Shown: positions 20,653-58,935 of the stretch, piece after piece | Numbering within the stretch: position 1 is the first letter of the stretch | Layout of the letters: each line of letters begins with the position of its first letter | NCBI RefSeq assembly: GCF_000327485.1 | Contig: NC_019943.1 | Location: forward strand, 2,232,001-2,296,000 | DNA from: Methanoregula formicica SMSP | GTDB lineage: Archaea; Halobacteriota; Methanomicrobia; Methanomicrobiales; Methanospirillaceae | Direction: 5' to 3' | Length of the DNA: 64,000 nucleotides | Notes under the pieces: generated by a model | Database searches by the model: none | What the model saw: only the letters and a program-made list of their open reading frames with translations | Told to the model about the DNA's origin: nothing | Program-made: the position numbers and the translations under genes

Positions 20653-20925
20653 TCAGTAGTAGCGGCCATACCTCTTATGTGCCTGCTCGATAGTCGGGAC
20701 TTCAAGCACAAATACAGCATCGGATTCTTTGCGAATCAGGAAGATTATGGTGTAACTTCGCCCGACGTGCATTCTCCAGATATGTTTCTTTGGGGACAGA
20801 CATTCTACGTCGGGTGCACTATACGGGTCCGCCAATTTCTGGATGTGGCGGAAGATCTGCACCCGAATCTTTTCGGGATACTTTGAGAGGGTTTTGATCA
20901 CACCCTTTTCGATGTGAACGATCAC
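20653..20925 (-). CDS. RelE/ParE-family toxin
   Basis: A 90-residue toxin-fold protein: an N-terminal two-helix hairpin (KTLSKYPEKIRVQIFRHIQKLADP), then beta strands with IWRMHVGRSYTIIFLIRKESDAVFVLEV and a C-terminal KRYGRYY. RelE relatives cleave mRNA on the ribosome; ParE relatives poison gyrase. The basic and aromatic residues at the C-terminus (Arg, Tyr) fit the RelE/YoeB side. Start is GTG 20925, preceded by GGAGG. The antitoxin is upstream at 20996, with a 21-codon ORF between. Confidence 0.8.
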   Translation of the reverse strand: MIVHIEKGVIKTLSKYPEKIRVQIFRHIQKLADPYSAPDVECLSPKKHIWRMHVGRSYTIIFLIRKESDAVFVLEVPTIEQAHKRYGRYY

Positions 20926-20990
20926 TACTTTCCTCCAAAGATCTGCTCAATTGCCTCAATACTGTGGGCATAATCATCGCTGATGATCAT
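20925..20990 (-). CDS. 21-aa coupling ORF between antitoxin and toxin
   Basis: ATG 20990 follows GAGGAG, which overlaps the end of the antitoxin gene. The peptide is MIISDDYAHSIEAIEQIFGG plus a final Lys, and its TAG shares one base with the toxin GTG start (TAGTG). The layout suggests reinitiation onto the toxin gene. The peptide itself resembles no domain I know; it might be an antitoxin remnant. Confidence 0.4.
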   Translation of the reverse strand: MIISDDYAHSIEAIEQIFGGK

Positions 20991-20995
20991 ACACA

Positions 20996-21220
20996 CTACT
21001 CCTCATACGGAATGTTGAGTTCTTTTGCCGCCTCATCGAGACGTACGAACTTGCCGTTCTTCGCGATCTCCTCCATATGGGTAAGGAAATCGTGTTCCTG
21101 TTTCAATGCAATCATCTCAGCCAACAGAGCATCGTACGTCTGGCCCGGCCTCTTGAGGTCGGAAAGTGACTCCCAGATCTCTTCCGTAACAGGGATTCTC
21201 TTACTTGCAACTTCGCCCAT
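20996..21220 (-). CDS. Antitoxin-like protein upstream of RelE
   Basis: A 74-residue protein starting MGEVASKRIPVTEEIWESLS, with GAGGAG 7 nt before the ATG. The pattern RIPVTEEIWESLSDLKRPGQTYDALLAEMI is a ribbon-helix-helix-like unit seen in small archaeal antitoxins (DUF7557-type), followed by a helical C-terminus (FVRLDEAAKELNIPYEE) that would wrap the toxin. Position directly before relE supports an antitoxin role. A longer ORF start at 21265 has no ribosome binding site. Confidence 0.7.
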   Translation of the reverse strand: MGEVASKRIPVTEEIWESLSDLKRPGQTYDALLAEMIALKQEHDFLTHMEEIAKNGKFVRLDEAAKELNIPYEE

Positions 21221-21296
21221 GCACGTCTCCTCATTTGCGCGTAATGCCATCAGCAGTGCAGACACTTCGCCGCTAACTATTTCATCTCTCTGGCCG

Positions 21297-23569: not shown

Positions 23570-26392
23570 TCAGGATTTGGCCGGGGGTGTCCGGGCGAGC
23601 ATCTCTTTAAGGAACTGCCCGGTATAGCTGCCGGGGACTGCGGAAACGTCTTCCGGTGTCCCGGCGGCCACGATCGTCCCGCCGGCATCGCCGCCCTCCG
23701 GGCCTATGTCGATGATATAATCGGCTGACTTGATCACGTCAAGGTTGTGCTCGATGACAACGACCGTGTTCCCCTTGGCCACGAGATCGTCGAGGACTTT
23801 GATCAGCTTCTTTGTATCGTCGAAGTGGAGTCCGGTAGTCGGTTCGTCCAGCAGGTAGAGCGTCCTTCCGGTGGCCCGTTTTGCCAGCTCGCGGGTGAGC
23901 TTGATCCGCTGCGCCTCGCCTCCCGAGAGCGTTGTCGAGCTCTGGCCGAGCTTGATGTAGTCAAGGCCGACGCGGGAGAGCATCTCCAGCTTTCCCCGTA
24001 TCGACGGGATGTTCGAGAACAGCGCCAGGGCTTCCTCAACGCTCATGTCCAGGACATCGGCGATCGATTTGCCCTTGTACTTCACCTCGAGCGTCTCGCG
24101 GTTGTACCGCTTGCCCTTGCACTCCTCGCATTCGATGAAGACGTCGGGGAGGAAGTTCATCTCGATCCGGATCAGGCCGTCGCCCTGGCAGGCCTCGCAC
24201 CGCCCGCCTTTGATGTTGAACGAGAACCGTCCCGGCCCATAACCCCGCATCTTTGCCTCCTTCGTTTCGGCAAAAATACTCCGGATATCGTCGAAGACCT
24301 TCGTGTAGGTCGCCGGGTTGCTCCGCGGGGTGCGGCCGATGGGGGACTGGTCGATGACGATCACCTTGTCGATTGCCGTATCGAAGAGGATCTTGTCGTG
24401 CTTCCCGACCGGGTCGCGCGACTTGTAGAGCCGCTGCATCATCCCCTTGTAGAGCGTCTCGTACACGAGCGTGGACTTCCCGCTCCCCGAGACGCCGGTG
24501 ATGACCGTCAGGAGACCGATCGGGAACTTTGCGTCGATGTTCTTTAAGTTGTTCTCGCGGCAGCCTTTCACGGTGAGGAACTTCTCCGCATTTCTCCGGC
24601 TCCCCGGCACATCGATCTGTTTTGTCCCGGCAAGATACTGGCCGGTCAGGGACTTCTTGTTCTTCTCGATCTGCTTCGGGGTCCCTTCGGCAATGACCGC
24701 TCCGCCATGCATCCCGGCCCCGGGCCCCATGTCGATGACGTGGTCGGCCGAGCGGATCATGTCCTCGTCGTGCTCGACCACGATCAGCGTGTTGCCGATG
24801 TCGCGGAGCGTCTTCAAGGTCTCGATCAGCTTGTGGTTGTCCCGCTGGTGGAGGCCGATGGAGGGCTCGTCCAGGACGTAGAGCACGCCCACCAGGTTCG
24901 CCCCGATCTGGGTGGCGAGCCGGATACGCTGCGCCTCCCCGCCGGAGAGCGTCCCCGCGTTCCGCGAGAGCGTGAGGTACCCGAGTCCCACCTTCTCCAA
25001 AAATAACAGCCGGCTGGTGATCTCCTTGAGGATCTGGCGCGAGATCTCGGCTTCCTTCTCGGTCAGCCGGATCTCCCGGAGCGCGGCAAGGTGGGCGGAG
25101 ATGGAAAGGTCCGTGAGATCGATGATGGACCTGCCGCCGATCCTGACGGCAAGCACCTTGTCCTTGAGCCGTTTCCCATGGCAGGAGGGGCACTCGAAGA
25201 CCCGCATGTAGCCTTCGAGTTCCCGCTTCCGCCACTCGGACTTGGTCTGGGCATAGAGCCGGGCAGTCTGCGGAAGGAGCCCTTCCCACTGGCCGTTGTG
25301 CGACCACTGGGCATCCCCGTTCCGGGCGCTCATCGAGAAGTGCATCTTCTCGTCCGAACCGTACATCAGAGCATTATACTGCTCTTCAGTCAGGTCCTTA
25401 ATCGGCGTCATCACGGAAAAGCCGAAGTGCTTTGCGACCGTTGCAAGGTACTGCCCGCGGAAGCCGTCCATCGGGTTGCGGTACGGGGCCACGGCGCCAT
25501 CGGCAATGCACCGTTCCTTGTCCGGGATGATGAGGTCGGGGTCGAACTCCATCTTCACGCCAAGACCGTGGCACTCCTCGCAGGCACCGAACGGGCTGTT
25601 GAACGAGAACATCCGGGGCTGGAGTTCCTCGAAGGTGAGGCCGCAGACCGGGCAGGCCATCAGCGAGGAGTACAGCGTCTCCTTCTCCAGCTCTCCGGCA
25701 GCGATGACAAGACCACCGGATTTCTTGAGAGCGTTCTCCACCGCTTCCGTGAGCCGCGACCGGTCGGACGATTCGAGCCGGTCGATGACGATCTCGATGT
25801 CGTGCTTCTTGTACCGGTCGAGCTTGATCTCCTCATCGGTCCGGATGATCTGCCCGTTGAGCCGTACCCGCGTGTATCCTTCCGCGTTCAGGTCCCGGAG
25901 GAGCTGCTGGTACGTCCCCTTCTTCTGCCGGACAATGGGAGCAAGGACCGTGACCATGCCGGGATATTCCGCTGCAACCTGGTCCGCGATCCGGTCGGGG
26001 GTCTGCGACGCGATCGGGATATTGTGCCCGGGACAGTACGGCGTCCCGATCCGGGCATAGAGGAGACGGAGGTAATCGTAGATCTCGGTGGTCGTCCCCA
26101 CCGTGCTCCGCGGATTTTTCGATGTGGTCTTCTGCTCGATGGAGATGGCCGGCGAGAGCCCTTCGATAAGGTCAACGTCCGGCTTCTGCATGATGCCGAG
26201 GAACTGCCGGGCGTACGAGGAGAGCGACTCCACGTACCGGCGCTGGCCCTCCGCATAGAGCGTGTCGAACGCGAGCGTGGATTTGCCGGAGCCGGAGACG
26301 CCGGTTATGACGACTAACTTGTCGCGGGGGATCTCCACGCTGATATTTTTGAGGTTGTGCTGGCGGGCACCTTTGATGATGATATCTTTCAT
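23570..26392 (-). CDS. uvrA: Excinuclease ABC subunit A
   Basis: Damage-recognition ATPase of nucleotide excision repair, about 940 residues. Two ABC cassettes: the first Walker A is [28 protein letters not shown] and its signature [15 protein letters not shown]; the second is [15 protein letters not shown] with [18 protein letters not shown]. Zinc-finger cysteines occur in CPVCGLTF and [16 protein letters not shown]. The start was set at [17 protein letters not shown], the invariant N-terminus; the extra upstream codons lack homology. Ribosome binding site is weak. Confidence 0.97.
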
Positions 26393-26553
26393 GCTGTGCT
26401 CAGTTGGTACAGCTCCAATGGATAAAGGGGTAAGGTTCGGGGCATGAAAGTGAACGATTAATGCTTTTATGATTAACAAAGATCCATATTCAATTTTTTT
26501 TCAAGTATCGATGCTGCAATGATAGTATCGAAGGCGACATTCGAATAAATGAA

Positions 26554-27261
26554 TTATTCTTTTTTTACGAGAGTTGCTTCATCAATTCTGCGAGCGAGTA
26601 AACTCGCGAAAATCAAATACTGCGCAGCTTTTTTTTCAGTTAAATCATGCTCTAAAGTATGAGCTTTGGGATTCCGAATGCCAATATACGCACCTTGGAA
26701 AATTAATAAAAACCCTTTTTGATCGTTCCTACCAGAATCTGTATTAAGATCACTTAACACTAATAAAGGATTTTGAATTGAAAGGGCTTGAGTGATAAGC
26801 TTATCCCCGTCATCCTCAAGTCCAGTTTTTTCCCGGATCTGATCAAAAATACCGATGATCGAATTCAGAACGGCATTACGATAATCGCCATTTTGAAATA
26901 AATCGTATGCATGACGTTGGATTATAGGATGTAAAAAATTTTTAAATCCAGACTTCTCTATCTTTAATTCGTCGCGAAGTTTTTTGTCAAGAATCTCTTC
27001 AATTTGAGGAATATCTTCTAATAAAATATCTCGATAATCATGTTCTTTTCCAAACCGGATATGGCGATTTAATTTCGCAGTATCAAGAGTAAAATTTCGC
27101 TCCCTCAATAAACGTTCTAATTTTTCTTGATCTCGTTTAATGTAGATGTTGATTAACGACGCAGAAGCTGTATCCCCCGATAAGATCTTTACAAGCGCAT
27201 CAACGGATTTTTCCCTAATCTCTCGAAGTGATTTGTTGATCTCAAAATATTCGTCAATCAT
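26554..27261 (-). CDS. TIGR02391-family protein (HEPN-like), possible defence gene
   Basis: The C-terminal 130 residues carry the TIGR02391 pattern: FLHPIIQRHAYDLFQNGDYRNAV, EDDGDKLITQALSIQNPLL, GFLLIFQGAYIGIRNPKAH and AAQYLIFASLLARRID. RNPKAH fits the R-x4-H core of HEPN ribonucleases. The N-terminal 100 residues are charged and helical. ATG 27261 has GGTGGAG just before it and overlaps the stop of a 25-aa ORF as ATGA. The DNA is markedly AT-richer than the flanking uvrA, a sign of recent acquisition. This family is often found in defence islands; the activity here is inferred. Confidence 0.7.
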   Translation of the reverse strand: MIDEYFEINKSLREIREKSVDALVKILSGDTASASLINIYIKRDQEKLERLLRERNFTLDTAKLNRHIRFGKEHDYRDILLEDIPQIEEILDKKLRDELKIEKSGFKNFLHPIIQRHAYDLFQNGDYRNAVLNSIIGIFDQIREKTGLEDDGDKLITQALSIQNPLLVLSDLNTDSGRNDQKGFLLIFQGAYIGIRNPKAHTLEHDLTEKKAAQYLIFASLLARRIDEATLVKKE

Positions 27262-27335
27262 TTCTCCACCAGATATTTTCCATTACGTGTCCAGTTTTGT
27301 AAAAAAGATTGTAGACTGGAAGCAGCCGATTTCAT
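27258..27335 (-). CDS. 25-aa ORF coupled to the TIGR02391 gene
   Basis: ATG 27335 follows AAAGGGAA and opens MKSAASSLQSFLQNWTRNGK, ending VEK. Its TGA overlaps the next ATG (ATGA). Its own ATG overlaps the TGA of an upstream frame, again as ATGA. The double overlap suggests a translated chain. Function unknown. Confidence 0.35.
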   Translation of the reverse strand: MKSAASSLQSFLQNWTRNGKYLVEK

Positions 27336-27483
27336 GCCATATTCCCTTTAAGACCGGGGATATCAATTAATTTCTCCAACTCATTAAGAAGACCATTAAT
27401 CAAAGAAAGTCCGGGGCATACATATCTCAGACATAACCTTGGATGATTTGCAATCCTTCATAAGGTGTTATTAATTGGCTCAT
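27332..27483 (-). pseudogene. Possible decayed small ORF upstream of the TIGR02391 gene
   Basis: ATG 27483 reads MSQLITPYEGLQIIQGYV and stops. A one-base shift would continue into RLCLRYVCPGLSLINGLLNE and end LKGNMA at 27332, just overlapping the next ORF. The second frame has no good start of its own. This looks like a small gene with one frameshift, or the remnant of a longer one. AT-rich like its neighbours. Confidence 0.25.
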
Positions 27484-27500
27484 ATTTTTCAGAATGAAAT

Positions 27501-27659
27501 TCAAACTCCGAATCCCGGGTATTTAGGTCTAGGCTCGTACTCGACACATTTTGTTGGGGGGTGTCTCTTATTTCCATATCCTTTGCATACATGATTAGGT
27601 GTACTAAATTTACCTGGACAGCCATCAACAGGACAAACATATACTTTTTTTACTACCAT
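27501..27659 (-). CDS. Small Cys-rich (zinc-binding) protein, 52 aa
   Basis: Starts MVVKKVYVCPVDGCPGKFST and contains four cysteines: CPVDGC, then C in HVCKGYG and C in PTKCVEY, with a His, enough for one zinc site. A strong TATA box (TATATAAAA, 27677-27685) lies about 22 nt upstream, so the mRNA is probably leaderless from ATG 27659; ATG 27668 is possible. Family unknown. AT-rich. Confidence 0.5.
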   Translation of the reverse strand: MVVKKVYVCPVDGCPGKFSTPNHVCKGYGNKRHPPTKCVEYEPRPKYPGFGV

Positions 27660-27676
27660 AATTCCCATTATTGTGT

Positions 27677-27685
27677 TTTTATATA
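27677..27685 (-). promoter_or_regulatory. TATA box of the small Cys-rich gene
   Basis: TATATAAAA on the minus strand, centred about 22 nt before ATG 27659. No ribosome binding site is seen, consistent with leaderless initiation. Confidence 0.55.
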
Positions 27686-27879
27686 TTAATATGACGAACA
27701 ATCTGCACAAGACGCCTAATCAATAAGATTTTTGACCCATCCGTACTAGCCATTTTCATTGCTCCGGTGCTGGCAATTTATAATGACCCTCAACAATCCC
27801 AAGTCCGTCCCTGCATTACCTTTTCACAACTCTATCAAATATCCCGTACAGGTAATACCTCACCATCGCCAGCGCCCCT

Positions 27880-28030
27880 GAGTCGTAAGACCCTCAGCAC
27901 CCCCTTGGGGGAGCTTCATTCCGAAGGAATGAAGCAGAGGGATTTTGAAAAATCCCTCTTGTCGAACCTCTTCAGAGGTGAGACATGAGAAGAACCTGAA
28001 AGGTTCTTCGAGTCAGGGCTGGCGCAAGGG
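27880..28030. repeat. Hairpin array B
   Basis: Four hairpins in a row: GCTTCATTCC-GAA-GGAATGAAGC (27913-27935), AGAGGGATTT-TGAA-AAATCCCTCT (27936-27959), ACCTC-TTCA-GAGGT (27966-27979) and GAAGAACCT-GAA-AGGTTCTTC (27989-28009). The last, with its flanks GAGACATGA and GAGTCAGGGCT, is an inverted copy of the module at 43477-43512. It lies between the small Cys-rich gene and hicB; the rest of 27660-27880 shows nothing. Confidence 0.75.
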
Positions 28031-28094
28031 GGGCTTCCGGCCATTAAATCCCAGAGGGAAAAATTGTATACTCTCCCACGAATATTCTGTACCT

Positions 28095-28310
28095 ATGAAA
28101 TATACGGTGGTGCTCGAACCACAGGAAGAAGGCGGTTTCACAGTCCAGTGCGTCGAGATCCCCGGGGCGATCAGCCAGGGTGAGACCCGGGAAGAAGCGC
28201 TCGCCAATATCAAGGAAGCAATAGAACTGGTTCTCGAAGTCCAGCGGGAAGAACTTCACAAGAGATCACCAGCACATCACCGCGAAATCTCACAAGTCGA
28301 AGTCTGCTGA
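28095..28310 (+). CDS. HicB-family antitoxin
   Basis: 71 residues with the partial RNase H-like HicB fold: MKYTVVLEPQEEGGFTVQCV, then IPGAISQGETREEALANIKEAIELVLE. It is the short form lacking a DNA-binding tail. Normally it neutralises HicA, encoded next (28365), but that gene is frameshifted here, leaving an orphan antitoxin. No clear ribosome binding site precedes the ATG. Confidence 0.8.
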   Translation: MKYTVVLEPQEEGGFTVQCVEIPGAISQGETREEALANIKEAIELVLEVQREELHKRSPAHHREISQVEVC

Positions 28311-28364
28311 TGCAGACTTCTCATCCTCGGATTCTGAAGAAACACTCGGAGGTCGAAGTGGCGG

Positions 28365-28585
28365 ATGTCATATAAACTCCCGGTCATTTCCGGGGAAGAA
28401 CTGGTCAAATACCTTGCAAAGCAGGGATTCGAGATCAAGCGCCGGACTTCGAGTCACGTTGTCGTGCAGAAAGAATGGCGTGTTTTTTCTGTACTCTTCA
28501 TCGCGAATTAAAGAGAGGAACATTGATCGGGATCCTCAAACAGGCCGGGATAGAGGCCGAAGATTTCAAGAAGGGATTCCGATAA
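28365..28585 (+). pseudogene. Frameshifted HicA toxin gene
   Basis: ATG 28365 reads MSYKLPVISGEELVKYLAKQ and on to RRTSSHVVVQKE, the dsRNA-binding HicA fold with the catalytic His in SSHVV. The frame then shifts twice: KNGVFF in the second frame and CTLHRELKRGTLIGILKQAG in the third, ending at TAA 28585. Two single-base insertions (near AAAGAATGG, and in the T6 run at 28482) would explain it. Either the toxin is dead or the reads erred at the homopolymer. Confidence 0.7.
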
Positions 28586-28777
28586 GAAACGGATACTTTC
28601 AATCTTTTTTTGGACTAATCCACCTCACGCTTGTGTCCTGATCCGTCCGGTCCCGACACCTGACGACAGGTCCGGCACTAAACCGGCTCGCGGGTCCGCC
28701 CGCTCACAACAAGCCCGCCCCGCCCCCATGCACAGCCGAAATGGAGAAAGCAAGCACATCCCTGACAGGAAACCTGA

Positions 28778-31717: not shown

Positions 31718-32065
31718 TTACCGGGGGTATTCCCGGACTATCGCAGCGATCTTCCCTTTGGTTGCCGGAATGTTCTTCGTTGCGATCTGCCAGATCACTT
31801 CGTGGTCAACCGCAAAATAATGATGGATAACCTTGTTCCTCAATCCCACGATGGTCTTCCAGGGAACTTCGGGATGTTGCTTCCGGATCTCATCCGGGAT
31901 CGCAGCAGCGGCTTCACCGATCTTCTCCACATTCCGTTCAACGGCATCGATCAGTTGCTCGTTCCTGATAAAATCCTCATAGGAGATCCCGGCAATGTAG
32001 CGCTCGATCTTCTCCATGGAGGCAAGGATCTCTGAAAGGTACAGGGCTGGAGACCGTGCGGTCAT
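31718..32065 (-). CDS. hepT: HepT-like HEPN toxin
   Basis: 115 residues of the DUF86/HepT family: four helices, with the active-site motif R-x4-H-x-Y in IVGLRNKVIHHYFAVD and a conserved VEKIGEAAAAIP helix. HepT proteins act as HEPN ribonucleases or tRNA-targeting toxins, held inactive through modification by the partner nucleotidyltransferase. The start overlaps the mntA stop by 4 nt. Confidence 0.92.
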   Translation of the reverse strand: MTARSPALYLSEILASMEKIERYIAGISYEDFIRNEQLIDAVERNVEKIGEAAAAIPDEIRKQHPEVPWKTIVGLRNKVIHHYFAVDHEVIWQIATKNIPATKGKIAAIVREYPR

Positions 32066-32352
32066 GCGTACTGTACCTCAGCAAGGATGGTATCCCGGAT
32101 CAACGGGTGGAGCGATCTCCGTATGACAAGATCGACATTATGATGGAGGCGGGATTCCAGGTAATCGGCAAGGTCCACGAGCTCCCATCCGATCGGCTTG
32201 TCAAATTCGACGATGATGTCGATATCGCTCGCTGGAGCAGCTTCCCCTCGTGCATAGGACCCGAAAATACCAATGGAGGTAACACCGTATTTCTTTTGGA
32301 TCTCGGGGAGGCACTCCCGCAGGATTTTTCGTATTTCATCAGCCGATTTCAT
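32062..32352 (-). CDS. mntA: MntA-like minimal nucleotidyltransferase antitoxin
   Basis: 96 residues with the nucleotidyltransferase core GS-x10-D-x-D (GIFGSYARGEAAPASDIDI) and a third acidic residue in HNVDLVIR. In characterised HepT/MntA pairs the enzyme AMPylates the toxin's Tyr. It precedes hepT with a 4-nt overlap, the standard order. The gene pair is in an accessory region rich in other toxin-antitoxin loci. Confidence 0.92.
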   Translation of the reverse strand: MKSADEIRKILRECLPEIQKKYGVTSIGIFGSYARGEAAPASDIDIIVEFDKPIGWELVDLADYLESRLHHNVDLVIRRSLHPLIRDTILAEVQYA

Positions 32353-52102: not shown

Positions 52103-52981
52103 TCAGCACCCGCACCGGAACAGTTCCCGCACCATCTCCGGGATCTCCGATACGCGGGACGCCACCGGCACGCCGTGCTTTTTAAGCCGGGCGATCTTGG
52201 ACTTCGCGTCGCCCTCGCCACCCTCGACAATGGCACCTGCGTGGCCCATCCGCTTGTCGGGGGGGGCCGAGACGCCGGCAATATAGGAGACGATCGGGAG
52301 GTCGGTGCAGGTCGCTCCTTCTTCCTCGAGGTTCCCGCCTACTTCCCCGATCAGGACAACGGCCTTTGTCTCCGGGTCCTTCTCGAAACGCTGCATCACG
52401 TCAACGAACGTCTGGCCGATGACCGGGTCGCCGCCGATCCCGACCACCGTGCTCTGGCCGATGCCGGCCCGGGTCAGTTCGTCCACGACCTCGTACGTGA
52501 GCGTTCCCGAGCGGGAGATGACCCCCACGTGGCCGCGGGTGAAGAGGGCTGACGGCATGATCCCCATCTTCACCTCGCCGGGCGAGAGGAGCCCGGGACA
52601 GTTGGGGCCGATCACGCTTGCGCCCTCCATCCGTGCGTAGGCAACTGCCTTCATGGTGTCCTGCACGGGGATGTGCTCGGTGATGCAGACGATGGTGTCG
52701 ATGCCGGCGTTCGCTTCCTCCATGATGGCATCGGCGGCCGCTCCTGCAGGAACGAAGATGACGGCAGCGCCGATGTCGTGTTCCTTCATGGCGTCCTTCA
52801 CGGTGTTGTACACCGGCACGCCGTGCACCTGCTGGCCGCCCTTGCCGGGCGTGACACCGGCCACGACGCCCCGGCCGCCGACCTGCTGTGCGTACGCGTT
52901 CATCAGCCCGATGTGGAACTCACCCTGCTTGCCGGTGGCGCCCTGCACGAGCACGCCGGTCTTCTTATCGCCGTAGATCAT
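52103..52981 (-). CDS. sucD: Succinyl-CoA synthetase alpha subunit
   Basis: Interconverts succinyl-CoA and succinate with nucleotide phosphorylation. CoA-binding TGVLVQGATGKQGEFHIGLM, the conserved IGPNCPGLLSPGEVKMG, and the phosphohistidine in RMGHAGAIVEGGEGDA. 292 residues. Starts 4 nt after sucC. In this organism it probably runs toward succinyl-CoA for 2-oxoglutarate synthesis by the neighbouring Kor enzyme. Confidence 0.96.
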   Translation of the reverse strand: MIYGDKKTGVLVQGATGKQGEFHIGLMNAYAQQVGGRGVVAGVTPGKGGQQVHGVPVYNTVKDAMKEHDIGAAVIFVPAGAAADAIMEEANAGIDTIVCITEHIPVQDTMKAVAYARMEGASVIGPNCPGLLSPGEVKMGIMPSALFTRGHVGVISRSGTLTYEVVDELTRAGIGQSTVVGIGGDPVIGQTFVDVMQRFEKDPETKAVVLIGEVGGNLEEEGATCTDLPIVSYIAGVSAPPDKRMGHAGAIVEGGEGDAKSKIARLKKHGVPVASRVSEIPEMVRELFRCGC

Positions 52982-52985
52982 AAAA

Positions 52986-54200
52986 TCACATCCCTCCCTT
53001 ACCCAACTGATACATCTCGGAAGTAGGTTGTGATTCTGGCTTAGTTATTACGGCTACTGAATGTTGGCCTCCGTTTGGTTTTTTCCACGGACCGGGTTTC
53101 TTTTGATGTGGTTGTTCTGATGTCACCTCGACAGCCTTCTTGACGACAAGGTCCATCGTGTCCAGCATCTCGTACCCCTTCTCCGAGAGGAGGCGCCGGC
53201 CCTCGGCCTCGTTGGTGCCCGCGAGCCGGACAATGACCTTCTGCGGGATCTCCGCAGCGATGATACCCTTTGCCACCTCGTCGCACTTGGTGATGCCGCC
53301 CAGCAGGTTGACGACAATAACCTTTACGCTCGGGACGCTTGCGACAAGCCGTACGGCGTTCTTCACGCGCTCGCTCTCTGCCCCGCCGCCCACGTCGAGG
53401 AAGTTTGCCGCCTTCCCGCCATAGTACTCGATGAGGTCAAGCGTTGCCATGGTGAGCCCGGCGCCGTTGCCGATCACGCCGATCTTCCCGTCCAGCTCCA
53501 CGTACGAGAAGCCGTGCTTCTCCGCCTCCCGCTCCCGCTCGGAGAGATCGCGGTTGACCGTGATCCCCTGCCTGCCCAGGGCATTGTCGTCCACGATGAT
53601 CTTCGCGTCTGCGGCAAAGATGCCGTTCGGAGTGGCAACAAGCGGGTTAATCTCGGCAAGGAGTGCATCTTTTTCAATGAAGACCTTGTACAGCTTGTTG
53701 ATGACCGGCCCGATCTCCTTAGGTGCACTGCCAAGGAGTTCGCGGATCAGGAACGGGGGCAGGTCCTTCATGAGCGGGTTTGCCACGACCTTCCGGATCA
53801 GCTCCGGGTGCTCCTTTGCGGTTACCTCGATCTCGACCCCGCCGGCCTCGGTGAAGAGGATGAGCGGCTGCCGGGATGAGCGGTCGACCGTGATGGAGAG
53901 GTAGTACTCGTGTTTTATGTCGAGTTTCTGTTCGGCAAGGACTTCCTTTACCGGCAGGCCCTTGATCTGCTTTGCGAAGAGATCCTTTGCCACCTTTGTG
54001 CCCGTGGCTTTGTCGGCCATCAGGATACCGCCGGCCTTGCCCCGGCCGCCCACATCCACCTGCGCCTTCAGGACGAATGCAGTGCCCAGTGCGTCAAGGT
54101 GGGGGGTGAGTTCGTCGGGCGATCGGATCAGGAATCCGGCAGGGACGGGGATCCCGGCCGCTTTGATGACATTCTTTGCCTCGTATTCACGGAGTTTCAT
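52986..54200 (-). CDS. sucC: Succinyl-CoA synthetase beta subunit with C-terminal extension
   Basis: ATP-grasp subunit: MKLREYEAKNVIKAAGIPVP, VLKAQVDVGGRGKAGGI, EINPLVATPNGIFAADAKI and NFLDVGGGAESERV with the GITKCDEVAKGI loop. The normal fold ends near VVKKAVEV (about residue 360); a further 45 residues (SEQPHQKKPGPWKKPNGGQ, then HSVAVITKPESQPTSEMYQL) are polar, unlike the family, and use AT-richer codons than the rest. It overlaps korC by 4 nt. Confidence 0.95.
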   Translation of the reverse strand: MKLREYEAKNVIKAAGIPVPAGFLIRSPDELTPHLDALGTAFVLKAQVDVGGRGKAGGILMADKATGTKVAKDLFAKQIKGLPVKEVLAEQKLDIKHEYYLSITVDRSSRQPLILFTEAGGVEIEVTAKEHPELIRKVVANPLMKDLPPFLIRELLGSAPKEIGPVINKLYKVFIEKDALLAEINPLVATPNGIFAADAKIIVDDNALGRQGITVNRDLSEREREAEKHGFSYVELDGKIGVIGNGAGLTMATLDLIEYYGGKAANFLDVGGGAESERVKNAVRLVASVPSVKVIVVNLLGGITKCDEVAKGIIAAEIPQKVIVRLAGTNEAEGRRLLSEKGYEMLDTMDLVVKKAVEVTSEQPHQKKPGPWKKPNGGQHSVAVITKPESQPTSEMYQLGKGGM

Positions 54201-54727
54201 GGCTGTTTCCCCAGCTCAAGGCCGAGCTGCATGGCTTTCAGGTTCAAGTCCCCGGTCCCTTTCGGCACGGAGTCGAGGATGGCGGATTTAAGCGACTCCT
54301 CGCTCACGACATGCGTTGCGGCAACGAGCGCCCCGAGCATCACGATATTGGCCACGATATCTTTCTTTAAGTTCTGCTTGGCCTCCCTGGTTGCCGGGAT
54401 CCCGATGCACCGGCACTTCGGCCGGGAGTGGACAAGGGTTGAATCGATGAGCATGATCGCCGACTCCCGGGCGGAAGCGCCGTACTTCTCGAAGCCCTCC
54501 TGCGACATGATGACGAAGATGTCAGGGACCGAGACCTTGGGGTACAGGATCTGCTCGTCATCGATGACCACCTGGCTCATCGATGCGCCGCCCCGGGCCT
54601 CGGGCCCGTACACCTGCGTCTGGACGGCGAACTTGTTGTCGTACATCACCGCGGCCCGGCCGATGATGACCGCTGAAAGAATGATCCCCTGGCCGCCAAA
54701 GCCCGAGAACCGGATCTCGTGCCTCAT
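54197..54727 (-). CDS. korC: 2-oxoglutarate:ferredoxin oxidoreductase gamma subunit
   Basis: 176 residues of the gamma domain: MRHEIRFSGFGGQGIILSAV, TQVYGPEARGGASMSQVVI and PDIFVIMSQEGFEKY. Binds CoA and completes the enzyme that reductively carboxylates succinyl-CoA to 2-oxoglutarate. ATG 54727 overlaps the korB stop as ATGA, which fixes the start despite a much longer open frame. Confidence 0.94.
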   Translation of the reverse strand: MRHEIRFSGFGGQGIILSAVIIGRAAVMYDNKFAVQTQVYGPEARGGASMSQVVIDDEQILYPKVSVPDIFVIMSQEGFEKYGASARESAIMLIDSTLVHSRPKCRCIGIPATREAKQNLKKDIVANIVMLGALVAATHVVSEESLKSAILDSVPKGTGDLNLKAMQLGLELGKQP

Positions 54728-55512
54728 GGCTTCACCCCCATGGCGGGACGGTTCCGCTTCGTGAGCTCGCCGACCACGAACAGCTCCTCCGGGATTGGCT
54801 GGCCCTGGTCGAGCAGGCGGTCCCGTTTCGCCTTCAGGAGCGAGTGGGACTTTAAGAACTCGACATGATCCATGACCTGCCGGAACTTGTTCCGGCGCCC
54901 GAACGCCGTGGGGCACTGGACCAGCACCTCGATGAACGAGAAGCCCGGGGTCTCGAGGCCGACCTTCACGGCCTTCTCGAGCTCCTTCACGTGGTAGGAG
55001 GTCCAGCGGGCAACGTAGTTCGCCCCTGCTGCGGTTGCGAGTTCGCAGAGGTCGAAGGGCGGCTCGGTGCAGCCGTAGGGCGTTGTCGAGGAGAGGCACT
55101 TTAACGGGGTGGTCGGGCTCCCCTGCCCGCCGGTCATGCCATAGATCTGGTTGTTCATGCAGACAACCGTCATGTCGATGTTCCGGCGGCAGGCGTGGAT
55201 GAAATGGTTGCCGCCGATGGCTGCAAGGTCGCCGTCGCCCGTGAAGACCACGACATTGAACGCGGGTTTTGCCATCTTGACACCGGTAGCGAACGCGAGC
55301 GCCCGCCCGTGGGTGGTGTGGAGTGAGTCGGTGAGGATGTAGCCAGGGGCCCGCGAGGAGCAGCCAATGCCGGAGACGAACACGGTGTCCTCCTTCTTCC
55401 AGCCCATCTGGTCGACCGCTGCAAGCGTGCAGTTGATGATCGTCCCGTTGCCGCAGCCGGCACAGTAGATGTGGGGGAGCCGGTCCGTGCGGAACCACTC
55501 GTCGTAGCTCAT
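54724..55512 (-). CDS. korB: 2-oxoglutarate:ferredoxin oxidoreductase beta subunit
   Basis: Thiamine-diphosphate subunit: IYCAGCGNGTIINCTLAAVD, the TPP/Mg motif GDGDLAAIGGNHFIHACRRN and CMNNQIYGMTGGQGSPTTP. No own Fe-S cluster. 262 residues. Overlaps korA and korC by 4 nt each. Confidence 0.96.
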   Translation of the reverse strand: MSYDEWFRTDRLPHIYCAGCGNGTIINCTLAAVDQMGWKKEDTVFVSGIGCSSRAPGYILTDSLHTTHGRALAFATGVKMAKPAFNVVVFTGDGDLAAIGGNHFIHACRRNIDMTVVCMNNQIYGMTGGQGSPTTPLKCLSSTTPYGCTEPPFDLCELATAAGANYVARWTSYHVKELEKAVKVGLETPGFSFIEVLVQCPTAFGRRNKFRQVMDHVEFLKSHSLLKAKRDRLLDQGQPIPEELFVVGELTKRNRPAMGVKP

Positions 55513-56612
55513 GCTTTCCCCTCCAGCACCTTCACCAGTTCCGCAGGCGTGTGGAGCTCCCCGCCCAGTTTCGGGATGGGGACGACCGGCACCTTCACGT
55601 GCCGCTGGATCTCGCGGGCGATCTGCCCGAGGTTCATCTCGGGAACGAGGAAGCGCTGTGCGTTTTTGAATTTCGCAAGCGCTTTCTCCGGGAACGGCCA
55701 GACCGTCCGGATCCGGAGGAACCCGATGTTTGTGTCCTTTTTATCGTGCATCACCTGCATGACCGTACGGACCGGGCCGCCGTAGGCAACGAAGACCTGC
55801 TCCGCGTCCGGGTTGACGATATCGTAGTCCGCCATCTCGTCGCGGGCGTTCTCGATCTTGTCCACGAGGCGCTTGACGAGCGCAGCGTGCAGCGGGGGGT
55901 TCGTTGCCGCCGGGTAGCCCCGCTCGTCGTGCGTCAGGCCGGTCACGTGGACGTGCTGGCCGGTGCCGAACGTCGGGAAGCCGGGGATGAGGTCCGGGTC
56001 GGTGACTTTAAACGGGGGGGTGCCCGGTACAAACGGTTTCCTGCCGATCTTTTCTACAGAATCGGGGACAAGGATCTTTTCCCGCATGTGGCCGACGGTC
56101 TCGTCTGCCATGAGGAATACTGGCGTGCGGTACTTGTCCGCGAGGTTGAAGGCCTTTGCCGTGAGCTCGAACATCTCCTGCACGGTGGCAGGCGAGAGAG
56201 CGATGACCGCGTAATCGCCATGCGAACCGAACCGTACCTGCATCATGTCCCCCTGCGCTGACATCGTGGGCTGGCCGGTGGAGGGGCCGCCCCGCTGGAC
56301 ATTGACGACAACGCAGGGCGTCTCGGTCATGGCGGCAAACCCGATGTTCTCCATCATCAGCGAGAAACCGGGGCCGCTCGTGGCCGTCATGGCACGGGCG
56401 CCGGTCCAGGATGCCCCGATGATCGAGGCCATGCTCGCGATCTCGTCCTCCATCTGGATGAAGACCCCGCCTTTCTTCGGGAGCTTCGCTGCCATCAGCT
56501 CGGCGACCTCGGTCGAAGGCGTGATGGGGTACCCGCCGAAGAAGTTACAGCCGGCGGCAAGCGCCCCCTCGGCGCAGGCCGTATTGCCCTGCCAGAATTC
56601 AGTCCGCGTCAA
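55509..56612 (-). CDS. korA: 2-oxoglutarate:ferredoxin oxidoreductase alpha subunit
   Basis: 367 residues. FFGGYPITPSTEVAELMAAK and MEDEIASMASIIGASWTGAR mark the pyrimidine-binding domain, with ATSGPGFSLMMENIGFAAMT and a C-terminal transketolase-like domain (EQVFVAYGGPVRTVMQVMHD). The PITPST form fits the 2-oxoglutarate enzyme. Overlaps korD and korB by 4 nt. Confidence 0.96.
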   Translation of the reverse strand: MTRTEFWQGNTACAEGALAAGCNFFGGYPITPSTEVAELMAAKLPKKGGVFIQMEDEIASMASIIGASWTGARAMTATSGPGFSLMMENIGFAAMTETPCVVVNVQRGGPSTGQPTMSAQGDMMQVRFGSHGDYAVIALSPATVQEMFELTAKAFNLADKYRTPVFLMADETVGHMREKILVPDSVEKIGRKPFVPGTPPFKVTDPDLIPGFPTFGTGQHVHVTGLTHDERGYPAATNPPLHAALVKRLVDKIENARDEMADYDIVNPDAEQVFVAYGGPVRTVMQVMHDKKDTNIGFLRIRTVWPFPEKALAKFKNAQRFLVPEMNLGQIAREIQRHVKVPVVPIPKLGGELHTPAELVKVLEGKA

Positions 56613-56881
56613 TATTCAATCGCCACCTTGTGGGGTTCGTACGGTTCTTCCTCGACCCAGTGGATTGCCTGGTCGGGGCAGGTGAGCTGGCAGACCCCGC
56701 AGAGCTGCCGGCCATAAAGGTTGCGGAGCCGGCAGTTGGTGCAGCGCTCGGGACGGTCCAGCTCGGGAACGGCAACCCCTTTGCGGTTCAGCTTCTTTCC
56801 CTCCCGGAAGATCTTATACGGGCAGACTTTCGTGCAGAGGTTGCATCCCTTGCACCGGTTCTCGTCGATGGCGAGCTTCAT
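56609..56881 (-). CDS. korD: 2-oxoglutarate:ferredoxin oxidoreductase delta (ferredoxin) subunit
   Basis: 90-residue 2[4Fe-4S] ferredoxin: CKGCNLCTKVCPYKIF for cluster 1 and CTNCRLRNLYGRQLCGVCQL ending TCP, an expanded spacing, for cluster 2. Passes electrons between ferredoxin and the TPP subunit. First gene of the six-gene korDABC-sucCD operon. Confidence 0.95.
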   Translation of the reverse strand: MKLAIDENRCKGCNLCTKVCPYKIFREGKKLNRKGVAVPELDRPERCTNCRLRNLYGRQLCGVCQLTCPDQAIHWVEEEPYEPHKVAIEY

Positions 56882-57004
56882 GGGTCGGAGTCCTGATCGT
56901 AGTACTTATACGGGAACTGTTACAAAAAACCTGTCTTTCGGATCATTACAGATAATTGATCCCCCTTTGCGCCATCCCTGCCCCCCAAAGGGGGGCGGGG
57001 GCGC

Positions 57005-57295
57005 ATGCGATGCCGCTGTATTACCTAAAAGGGATACTCTGACAAAGAGGTGTTTTCATAAAATGAAATTTGAAATTGAGGCCGCCGCGGGGAGTCAATC
57101 ATCGCATCAGCGAGGATTGACTGGAGAAGGTTTCAACCTTCGACTTCGCCCTTCGGGGATTGAGTGGTTCATCAGAACCACGAAGTCGAGAAGAACCATC
57201 AGGTTCTTTGAGTCGGCGGCGGCAACCATCTTCATGGGGGTATGGGGGCATCAGCCCCCATCATTACTTCAAATGATTTCAACAGAACAAAAACT
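57005..57295. repeat. Structured repeat element, copy 2
   Basis: Same frame as 43690-43867: GATGCCGCTGTATTACCTAA block at 57009, outer GCCGCCG/CGGCGGC stem (57081-57087 with 57214-57220) and ATGGGGGC-ATCA-GCCCCCAT (57242-57261) then CATTACTTCAAATG. Inside the outer stem sits an insert absent from copy 1: AGTCAATC/GATTGACT around CGC-ATCA-GCG, CGACTTCG/CGAAGTCG enclosing GTGGTTC-ATCA-GAACCAC, and AAGAACC-ATCA-GGTTCTT. A G6/C6 hairpin precedes it at 56980-56996. Confidence 0.75.
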
Positions 57296-57302
57296 TCGAA
57301 TG

Positions 57303-57362
57303 TCCCCTTGCTCGAAGAACCTTGTTGATTCTTTTCGTGTCTCGGTTCTGATGATTCTCACC
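57303..57362. repeat. Degraded copy of the C2 module
   Basis: CTCGAAGAACCTTG, TTCTTTTCGTGTCTCGG and TCTGATGATTCTCACCA follow the order of 43480-43530, but the stems no longer pair perfectly. It completes the 56882-57415 gap, which holds no gene. Confidence 0.6.
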
Positions 57363-57415
57363 AAACTAAGAGCATGAAAAGAGGGTTAGAGAACTTGCAG
57401 CACAATCCCTTCCCA

Positions 57416-57988
57416 TTACTTACCCGGCTTGCACGACCCCGGCACATACTTCCGGAACGCCTCGTCCGCCTTCTTCCGGGCCGCCTCGAAGATGTCGGTC
57501 CCGTGCGAATCGATCCCGACCACAACCGGAAGCCGGTCGAGGGCTATCGCCCAGACCGCCTCGGCCATCCCGAGGTCATCGTAGTACACGCCTTTGAGTG
57601 TCATGCGGGTCGAGGCGAGGGCTGCGCACCCCCCGGTGAACGCGAGGTATACACCCTTTCCTTTCAGCTGGCTGCGCACGGTTGCTCCCATGCCGCCCTT
57701 GCCGATGAACGCCCGGACTCCCCTGTCGATGAGGAATCCTTCCATCTCGTTCATCCGGGCAGAGGTCGTGGGGCCGGCGGCGATGACGTTGCCGTCCTGG
57801 ATCACCGGGCCGCAATGGTAGATGACCGCACCCTCCGGGTTGAACGGGATCCCGTCCTCCTGCATCCGGAGGTGCGCCTCGTCGCGTGCGGTATACACGA
57901 TGCCCGAGAGCTCGACATGGTCGCCAGCCCTGAGTTCCAGCACCTCGTCGCCAAGCGGGGTCGTGAGCCAGACGGGCTGTGCGGTCAC
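57416..57988 (-). CDS. fumB: Fumarate hydratase class I, beta (C-terminal) subunit
   Basis: 190 residues: LTTPLGDEVLELRAGDHVEL, GPVIQDGNVIAAGPTTSARM, FIGKGGMGATVRSQLKGKGV and AEAVWAIALDRLPVVVGIDS. Forms the second half of the Fe-S fumarase. Start is GTG 57988, overlapping the fumA stop (GTGA) with AGGTGAGG just before; the upstream ATG of the longer frame is inside fumA. Confidence 0.95.
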   Translation of the reverse strand: MTAQPVWLTTPLGDEVLELRAGDHVELSGIVYTARDEAHLRMQEDGIPFNPEGAVIYHCGPVIQDGNVIAAGPTTSARMNEMEGFLIDRGVRAFIGKGGMGATVRSQLKGKGVYLAFTGGCAALASTRMTLKGVYYDDLGMAEAVWAIALDRLPVVVGIDSHGTDIFEAARKKADEAFRKYVPGSCKPGK

Positions 57989-58821
57989 AACCTCACCTCC
58001 ACGGTTGCGTGCCGGTTGGCCCAGCACTGGATGTTGACTGCAACCGGCAGCGAGGCCGTGTGGCAGCCGGCGGTTTTTACCTTTACCGCGAGCGCCGTGA
58101 AGTCCCCGCCCAGACCCATAGGCCCGATGCCGAGTTTGTTGACTGCGCAGAGAAGCGACTGTTCGAAGTCAGTCATTTTGTCAACCGGTTCGAGCAGCGC
58201 CTCCTTAGCGAGGGCTGCTGCGCCGTCGAACGTCCCGCCGATCCCGACACCGATGATGACCGGCGGACAGGGACGTGCCCCCGCAAGGTACATGGTCTCG
58301 ACCACGAACTTTTCTACCTGGTCCTTCTGCGACGGGAGGAGCATGATCGTCCGCGACATGTTCTCCGCGCCGGCACCCTTCGGGAGTACCGTGACCGTGA
58401 ACTTCTTCCCGGGCTTCACATGGATGGCCGGCATTCCTGCGCCGGTATTATCGTTGGTATTGTGCCGGGTGAGCGGGTCCACCACGTTGGGACGGAGGGG
58501 GATCTCCTCCGTTGCCCTCCGTACACCTTCCGCAACTGCATCATACAGCTCCTGCGTGAGCGGGACAGCGGGTGGGATGGTGAGATAGATGACGGGGACA
58601 CCGGTGTCCTGGCACAGCGGTACGCCACGTTCCCCGGCGATTTTGATGTTGTGCAGGATGTTGGCAAACTCAGCCCTCGCAACCGGGTTTGTCTCGGCAC
58701 GGGCTGCATCCCCGATCACCTTCAGTACATCCACCGGCAGGTGGATGACGGCCTCACGGTACGCCGCGAGCGTGGCGGAGGCGAGCGCTGCATGGATACG
58801 ATCGGGGTCCGTAACCTGCAT
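57985..58821 (-). CDS. fumA: Fumarate hydratase class I, alpha (N-terminal) subunit
   Basis: 278 residues carrying the catalytic [4Fe-4S] cluster ligands: Cys in GVPLCQDTGVPVIYL, Cys in GARPCPPVIIGVGIGG, and Cys in VKTAGCHTASLPVAV. RHNTNDNTGAGMPAIHV is also typical. Converts fumarate and malate. TATA-like GCTATATTAC about 25 nt before ATG 58821 suggests a leaderless mRNA. Confidence 0.96.
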   Translation of the reverse strand: MQVTDPDRIHAALASATLAAYREAVIHLPVDVLKVIGDAARAETNPVARAEFANILHNIKIAGERGVPLCQDTGVPVIYLTIPPAVPLTQELYDAVAEGVRRATEEIPLRPNVVDPLTRHNTNDNTGAGMPAIHVKPGKKFTVTVLPKGAGAENMSRTIMLLPSQKDQVEKFVVETMYLAGARPCPPVIIGVGIGGTFDGAAALAKEALLEPVDKMTDFEQSLLCAVNKLGIGPMGLGGDFTALAVKVKTAGCHTASLPVAVNIQCWANRHATVEVRL

Positions 58822-58935
58822 TCAGATATACTGGGGGGCGGGGGGTAATATAGCGAACGGAGAGCCTGAAGCAGGCTGGATTTTCAGGCACTGTTTCTTT
58901 TTAGCCCCCTACCCCGGATACCGTTACTACAGAAA

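What the first reader, a model, noticed from the sequence alone, without database searches (positions are those of the whole stretch)
26554..27483. AT-rich TIGR02391/HEPN-like gene with a chain of tiny overlapping ORFs
The gene has an RNPKAH motif and is preceded by a 25-codon ORF with ATGA overlaps on both sides and by a frameshifted small ORF. The block is far more AT-rich than uvrA next to it. It could be a compact defence or toxin unit with small regulators, newly acquired.
Basis: partly seen in the sequence, partly recalled or inferred. Interest (0 to 1): 0.5.

Follow-up and report, generated by a model that had tools for sequence, protein, structure and literature searches.

The report
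Solo HEPN ribonuclease-like defence gene
A methanogen carries one horizontally spread gene that probably encodes an RNA-cutting defence protein of a known family; the tiny overlapping genes reported beside it look like chance reading frames.

Summary
The gene is real: 26554-27261 (-) encodes a 235-aa protein whose C-terminal half is a PF09509/TIGR02391 ("Ymh") HEPN domain (128.2 bits against a cutoff of 25; 81.1 against 39.45). R196, N197 and H201 of RNPKAH are invariant in 18 of 18 aligned sequences. It lies in the most AT-rich part of the window (35% GC against 61% for uvrA). The chain of tiny ORFs is not supported. In 20 of 20 homolog upstream regions no relative of the 25-aa peptide, or of two frames beside it, was found at E<=10. 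It matched 0 of the other 231 genomes of the order. In the nearest relative only 52 nt upstream align, with gaps that break the frame. The ATGA overlaps follow automatically from ATG-A starts. Bacterial homologs sit beside Lamassu, Gabija, AbiJ_NTD4, short-pAgo SIR2 and type I restriction genes; one looks like a lone integron cassette. Between the two archaeal copies dN/dS is 0.11. Best reading: a self-contained, horizontally mobile HEPN RNase effector, probably of abortive-infection type. It is a new member of a known kind; the mechanism is inferred.

The parts
26554..27261 (-). PF09509/TIGR02391 (Ymh) HEPN gene, 235 aa
   Evidence: 19 homologs matching from residue 1
26947..27261 (-). N-terminal helical bundle (residues 1-105); no Pfam or NCBIfam name; conserved in the homologs
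   Evidence: predicted helices 2-27, 31-54, 62-70, 73-98
26575..26934 (-). HEPN (Ymh) domain, residues 110-229
   Evidence: three HEPN crystal structures align to about residues 110-231
26659..26676 (-). RNPKAH = R-x4-H motif (R196 to H201), predicted RNase active site
   Evidence: R196, N197, H201 invariant in 18 of 18 sequences; role from PMC3710099
27262..27313 (-). 52-nt leader shared with the nearest relative; probably promoter and ribosome-binding region
   Evidence: DNA alignment to L005 stops at 27313; promoter role is inference
27258..27335 (-). 25-codon ORF of the finding; read here as non-coding
27335..27461 (-). 'frameshifted' small frames of the finding; read here as non-coding

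Best explanation
The gene is a self-contained single-gene effector. An N-terminal helical bundle, probably for sensing or dimerisation, is joined to a C-terminal HEPN RNase domain with an R-N-x3-H active site. The protein is expressed from its own short leader and would be held inactive until infection. It would then cut host or phage RNA so that infected cells stop growing or die before progeny spread (abortive infection). It spreads horizontally as a solo gene between defence islands, TA-rich hot spots and integron-like arrays. Shown here: family, motif, homologs, purifying selection, context, absence of conserved small partners. Inferred: RNase activity, dimer, trigger, abortive-infection outcome.
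For: Family matches. Motif residues invariant in 18 of 18. C-terminal half aligns to HEPN crystal structures 2hsb, 1ufb and 1wol at Z 8.8, 7.8 and 7.6. Partial PADLOC matches of the HEPN half to PD-Lambda-3_B (2.1e-18) and Aga_HEPN (4.9e-20). dN/dS 0.11 over 210 codons against the G067 copy. Of 18 homolog loci whose neighbours were scanned, 11 had a neighbour matching a defence or TA model that I could assign to the locus: L008, L011, L013 LmuA 13-15 nt upstream; L012, L014, L015, L016, L023 PDC-S32 (AbiJ_NTD4) upstream; L019 SIR2-Aga and L022 type I REase; L005 MntA. L008, L011 and L015 have GajA downstream. In L006 the gene lies between integron attC-like sites, as expected of a one-gene unit. 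PMC3710099 (passages) lists Ymh as HEPN with the catalytic motif, as solos and fusions, in R-M operons; PMC3506569 (one passage) also links Ymh to R-M.
Against: No experiment on any solo member was found. Structural Z values lie below the tool's caution level (about 13) for helical bundles. No matched control set was scanned for neighbour enrichment, and several loci share one arrangement, so 11 of 18 is not 11 independent events. The G067 copy has a frameshift in an A-run after residue 210, so it may be inactive there or mis-assembled. The methanogen locus itself has TA genes nearby but no large defence system was seen beside it.
Confidence: 0.6

Rival explanations
1. Accessory effector: the HEPN protein works only together with the neighbouring large defence system (Lamassu, Gabija, AbiJ_NTD4, pAgo or R-M), as a second line when the first fails.
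For: Very close upstream genes in some loci: LmuA 13-15 nt in L008, L011, L013 and PDC-S32 (AbiJ_NTD4) 23 nt in L012. R-M linkage and paraMORC fusions of Ymh are reported in PMC3710099.
Against: The partners differ from locus to locus; the methanogen copy has none beside it; the L006 copy looks like a lone integron cassette.
Confidence: 0.2
2. Remnant: the gene and the small frames are pieces of a larger decayed gene or island fragment without present function.
For: AT-rich patch of mixed origins; C-terminal frameshift in the G067 copy; small frames in several phases upstream.
Against: The window copy is full length and aligns from residue 1 to about 229-235 with homologs; dN/dS 0.11; the upstream frames resemble nothing.
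Confidence: 0.1
3. Toxin with tiny coupled regulators: the 25-aa peptide or its neighbours act as antitoxin or translational regulator.
For: The overlaps exist; the double ATGA arrangement came up in only 2.4% of shuffles.
Against: 0 of 20 homolog upstream regions hold a relative at E<=10, and in the nearest relative the overlapping frame is open for only 7 codons with no start. The aligned leader has 2-nt and 3-nt gaps. No hit in the other 231 genomes of the order.
Confidence: 0.04

Closest known systems
Ymh / PF09509 / TIGR02391 HEPN family (Anantharaman et al. 2013, PMC3710099)
   Same: Domain match above the curated cut-offs; R-x4-H motif; solo architecture and defence-type context as described for the family.
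   Different: An N-terminal helical bundle without a Pfam or NCBIfam name, conserved from methanogens to Betaproteobacteria. The passages I read mention fusions to AbiJ-NTD1/2, AbiTii and paraMORC but not this one.
PD-lambda-3, protein B (PADLOC PD-Lambda-3_B)
   Same: The C-terminal HEPN half matches profile positions 156-264 of 270. PD-lambda-3 is called an abortive infection system in PMC13190303 (passages).
   Different: The first 155 profile positions are not matched; no partner A was looked for.
Argonaute-associated HEPN protein (PADLOC Aga_HEPN)
   Same: HEPN half matches profile positions 254-379 of 382.
   Different: Rest of the profile not matched; immediate neighbours in the window are uvrA and a small cysteine-rich ORF. 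One homolog (L019) does sit beside a SIR2-Aga gene.
HepT-MntA toxin-antitoxin (present at 31718-32352)
   Same: HEPN RNase-type protein in the same region.
   Different: A different HEPN family (PF01934) with a nucleotidyltransferase antitoxin; the Ymh gene has no adjacent MntA.

Membership tests
PF09509 / TIGR02391 (Ymh HEPN) | Profile match above the curated cut-off | tested here: met
   128.2 bits against 25; 81.1 against 39.45
PF09509 / TIGR02391 (Ymh HEPN) | R-x4-6-H catalytic motif | tested here: met
   R196, N197, H201 invariant in 18 of 18 aligned sequences; definition from PMC3710099
PF09509 / TIGR02391 (Ymh HEPN) | HEPN fold | tested here: inconclusive
   HEPN entries 2hsb, 1ufb, 1wol at Z 8.8, 7.8, 7.6 over about residues 110-231, under the tool's caution level for helical bundles; Foldseek alone gave nothing at E<=0.001
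PF09509 / TIGR02391 (Ymh HEPN) | RNase activity | not testable with these tools
   needs protein
PD-lambda-3 | Full-length match to protein B | tested here: not met
   only profile positions 156-264 of 270 matched
PD-lambda-3 | Partner gene A adjacent | not tested
   only three other window proteins were scanned with PADLOC
Toxin-antitoxin pair with the 25-aa ORF | Conserved small partner upstream of the toxin | tested here: not met
   0 of 20 homolog upstream regions; 0 of the other 231 genomes of the order

The most novel reading that the evidence does not exclude
The N-terminal helical bundle plus Ymh-HEPN protein is an uncharacterised one-gene abortive-infection system shared by Archaea and Bacteria. 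The bundle is a built-in phage sensor and antitoxin-like lid, which is why the gene can move alone: as an integron cassette, behind Lamassu or AbiJ genes, or into a methanogen hot spot.
Probability: 0.35. Interest if true: 0.45.

Novelty: new member of a known kind. Interest (0 to 1): 0.22.

Why it matters
It removes a false lead (small coupled regulators) and points to a compact one-gene candidate that could be tested from one plasmid. If the solo protein protects cells, it would supply a mechanism for one of the HEPN families named in 2013 that has stayed 'of unknown function', and show a defence gene shared between methanogens and Betaproteobacteria.

Tried and rejected
Radical-SAM remnant: the 41-aa upstream frame matched a radical SAM-like protein of G046 at E 0.009 with a shared VCPGLSL (the name radical SAM is mine, from the sequence). 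A profile of that family, built from proteins of 20 loci, scored it 3.3 bits, tied with random frames of the window; rejected as chance.

RNA element: no Rfam family at gathering score in 26300-28300. Inverted repeats that could bound an insertion in 26380-28300: none found. Sigma-70 and terminator scans gave no excess (archaeal promoters are not covered).

Phage carriage: no match in 50,697 phage records at E<=1e-5. Plasmids: 5 of 72,556 records match at E<=1e-15, one over the full length.

Sequence search of solved structures: no credible match. Foldseek against the PDB: nothing at E<=0.001. The other rows (designed bundles and various helical proteins) cover about residues 1-105 and are read as common helical bundles. 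No proteins of the PD-lambda-3 or Aga_HEPN families were fetched for a direct comparison.

Papers: TIGR02391 gave 0 papers, Hypoth_ymh 1 unrelated, PF09509 1; a search for the name SPARHA (recalled) gave only unrelated papers in the listing. PMC10952713 (one passage) lists PD-lambda-3 under a PD-(D/E)XK nuclease and says nothing there of a HEPN domain in it, so the HEPN link to PD-lambda-3 rests on the PADLOC profile alone.

Rows dropped: L010 (near-duplicate of L009 in the gene and upstream) and L020 (of L019) were left out of the protein alignment and of the neighbour scan; L024 (partial match) was left out of the alignment. The 20 upstream regions include both members of these two pairs, and L021 held only 295 nt upstream. 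Of 113 neighbour ORFs, 91 were scanned as a pool and 30 individually: 7 of 10 hit a model, 1 of 10, 10 of 10 (chosen after the pool result).

Full report
The finding. The window is part of a 2,820,858-base single-contig genome. The nearest relative's record is titled 'uncultured Methanomicrobiales archaeon', so the host is taken to be a methanogen.

The gene. ORF 26554-27261 on the minus strand encodes 235 aa. Pfam gives PF09509 at residues 110-226 (128.2 bits, cutoff 25) and NCBIfam TIGR02391 at 110-229 (81.1, cutoff 39.45). Anantharaman et al. 2013 (PMC3710099; passages read) place Ymh in the HEPN superfamily, mark the catalytic motif as present, and describe solos, fusions and R-M operons. 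The motif here is RNPKAH (R196-H201); R196, N197 and H201 are invariant in 18 of 18 aligned sequences. AlphaFold2 on that alignment gives an almost all-helical two-part protein (mean pLDDT 88.5, pTM 0.56, so the relative placing of the halves is uncertain). The C-terminal half aligns to three HEPN crystal structures at Z 7.6-8.8. That is supportive but within the range the tool warns about for helical bundles; Foldseek alone had no match at E<=0.001. The N-terminal half is a helical bundle without a family name.

Composition. The gene has 35.2% GC, the 449 nt upstream 36.3%, uvrA 61.4% and the window 58.0%; the four 1-kb windows with the lowest GC all lie here. The AT-richness is therefore real. 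The homolog in G067 has 34% GC, while the betaproteobacterial homologs have roughly 49-60%, so AT-richness is a property of this archaeal lineage of the gene.

The tiny ORFs. They exist, but three tests say they are not genes. (a) Expectation: a gene that begins ATG-A contains an overlapping TGA by necessity; in 5000 shuffles 11% keep the frame open for 25 or more codons and 2.4% reproduce a double-ATGA ORF of 20 or more codons. (b) Conservation in the nearest relative: the DNA alignment to L005 covers the gene plus only 52 nt upstream, with 2-nt and 3-nt gaps there that break the 25-aa frame. In L005 the overlapping frame is open for 7 codons and has no start. (c) Association: the 25-aa peptide and two neighbouring frames have no match at E<=10 in the 1 kb (295 nt for L021) upstream of 20 homologs, while the window control is found. 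The 25-aa peptide matches 1 of 232 genomes of the order, the window's own. A 41-aa frame matched 2 of 108 family genomes, its own and a weak one (E 0.009) that proved to be chance.

Homologs and context. One scan of genome contigs gave 20 loci, 19 of them matching from residue 1; the patterns used find close relatives only. Among 108 family genomes only the window's own and G067 carry a copy matching from residue 1; G042 has a HEPN-half match, 40% identical. So the gene is sporadic, consistent with horizontal transfer. Neighbouring ORFs of 18 loci were scanned: 91 of 113 as a pool, 30 individually. L008, L011 and L013 have LmuA ending 13-15 nt before the gene. L012, L014, L015, L016 and L023 have a PDC-S32 gene upstream, at 23 nt in L012 and about 94-221 nt in the others; AbiJ_NTD4 was matched by 5 pool members, and I take these to be the same five. 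L008, L011 and L015 have GajA downstream. L019 has a SIR2-Aga gene and L022 a type I restriction subunit. L005 has MntA in its region. In one search only L014's gene hit a model, 1 of 10. That makes 11 of 18 loci, without a control set and with shared descent among some. L024, a partial homolog, lies near a UvrD/GajB-like helicase and is not counted. A Massilia plasmid copy lies near a gene annotated DUF4209, another HEPN family according to PMC3710099.

Mobility. In L006 (a Betaproteobacterium) the gene is preceded by TTGGGGCGC and followed by ACGCCCCAAC, with hairpins on either side (z -4.3 and -3.2) and another attC-like site further up (z -4.9; a fourth candidate, z -0.8, is weak). These are the features of an integron cassette (recognised from memory; no integrase was looked for), which would carry one gene. 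In the archaea, the G067 copy sits beside a locus equivalent to window 52103-58850, with a MntA-HepT pair 3.2 kb away in the same orientation relative to the gene. In the window the same genes sit beside uvrA. The gene plus leader and the TA pair therefore recur together at a different site.

Selection. Over codons 1-210, window against G067: dN 0.13, dS 1.15, dN/dS 0.11. The gene has been kept for function in at least part of that history. The G067 copy has one fewer A in a run after residue 210, which truncates the last helix. It may be a real loss or a homopolymer error in that assembly.

How it most likely works. By family knowledge (recalled, not tested), HEPN RNases dimerise so that the R-x4-H motifs form one active site. 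The N-terminal bundle is the natural candidate for sensing or restraint because it is the only other part and is conserved in solo copies. Abortive infection is inferred from the context and from the partial resemblance to PD-lambda-3 B, a system called abortive in PMC13190303 (passages). A single-component unit is the best reading, at about 0.6; an accessory role to neighbouring systems is the main rival.

Novelty. A new member of a known kind. The literature searches listed no experimental work that I could recognise on a solo TIGR02391 protein; that is a statement about this open-access library and these searches only. PMC12988326 on archaeal immunity was seen in passages only and those do not mention this family.

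Noticed in passing
window 27501-27668 (-): Small cysteine-rich ORF (about 55 aa, zinc-ribbon-like spacing) with a 74% identical homolog in G062 where the frame is kept; no HEPN gene follows it in the 400 nt looked at there, so it looks like an independent small mobile gene.
   Followed up: partly
window 31718-32065 and 32062-32352 (-): HepT-like and MntA-like toxin-antitoxin pair; the same pair occurs 3.2 kb from the HEPN gene in G067 (L005 130-834), where the HepT gene looks frameshifted.
   Followed up: partly
window 28095-28583 (+): HicB-like gene followed by a HicA-like gene that appears broken by a frameshift (named from memory, no family search); the stretch 28048-28649 recurs in G067 contig 24 at about 69.5 kb.
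   Followed up: no
window about 27882-28034: Dispersed repeat present elsewhere in the same genome (90% identical copy at 1410889-1411040 of the contig) and in pieces in related genomes; possibly a small mobile element.
   Followed up: no
L006 901-4765: Chain of small same-strand ORFs separated by attC-like hairpins: an integron-like cassette array in a Betaproteobacterium, with the HEPN gene as one cassette.
   Followed up: partly
L005 4600-4650: One-base shorter A-run than in the window shifts the frame of the G067 HEPN gene after residue 210: real loss or homopolymer error.
   Followed up: no
window 20653-21265 (-): Possible RelE/ParE-type toxin-antitoxin pair next to uvrC (named from memory); a similar pair lies at L005 1779-2266.
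   Followed up: no
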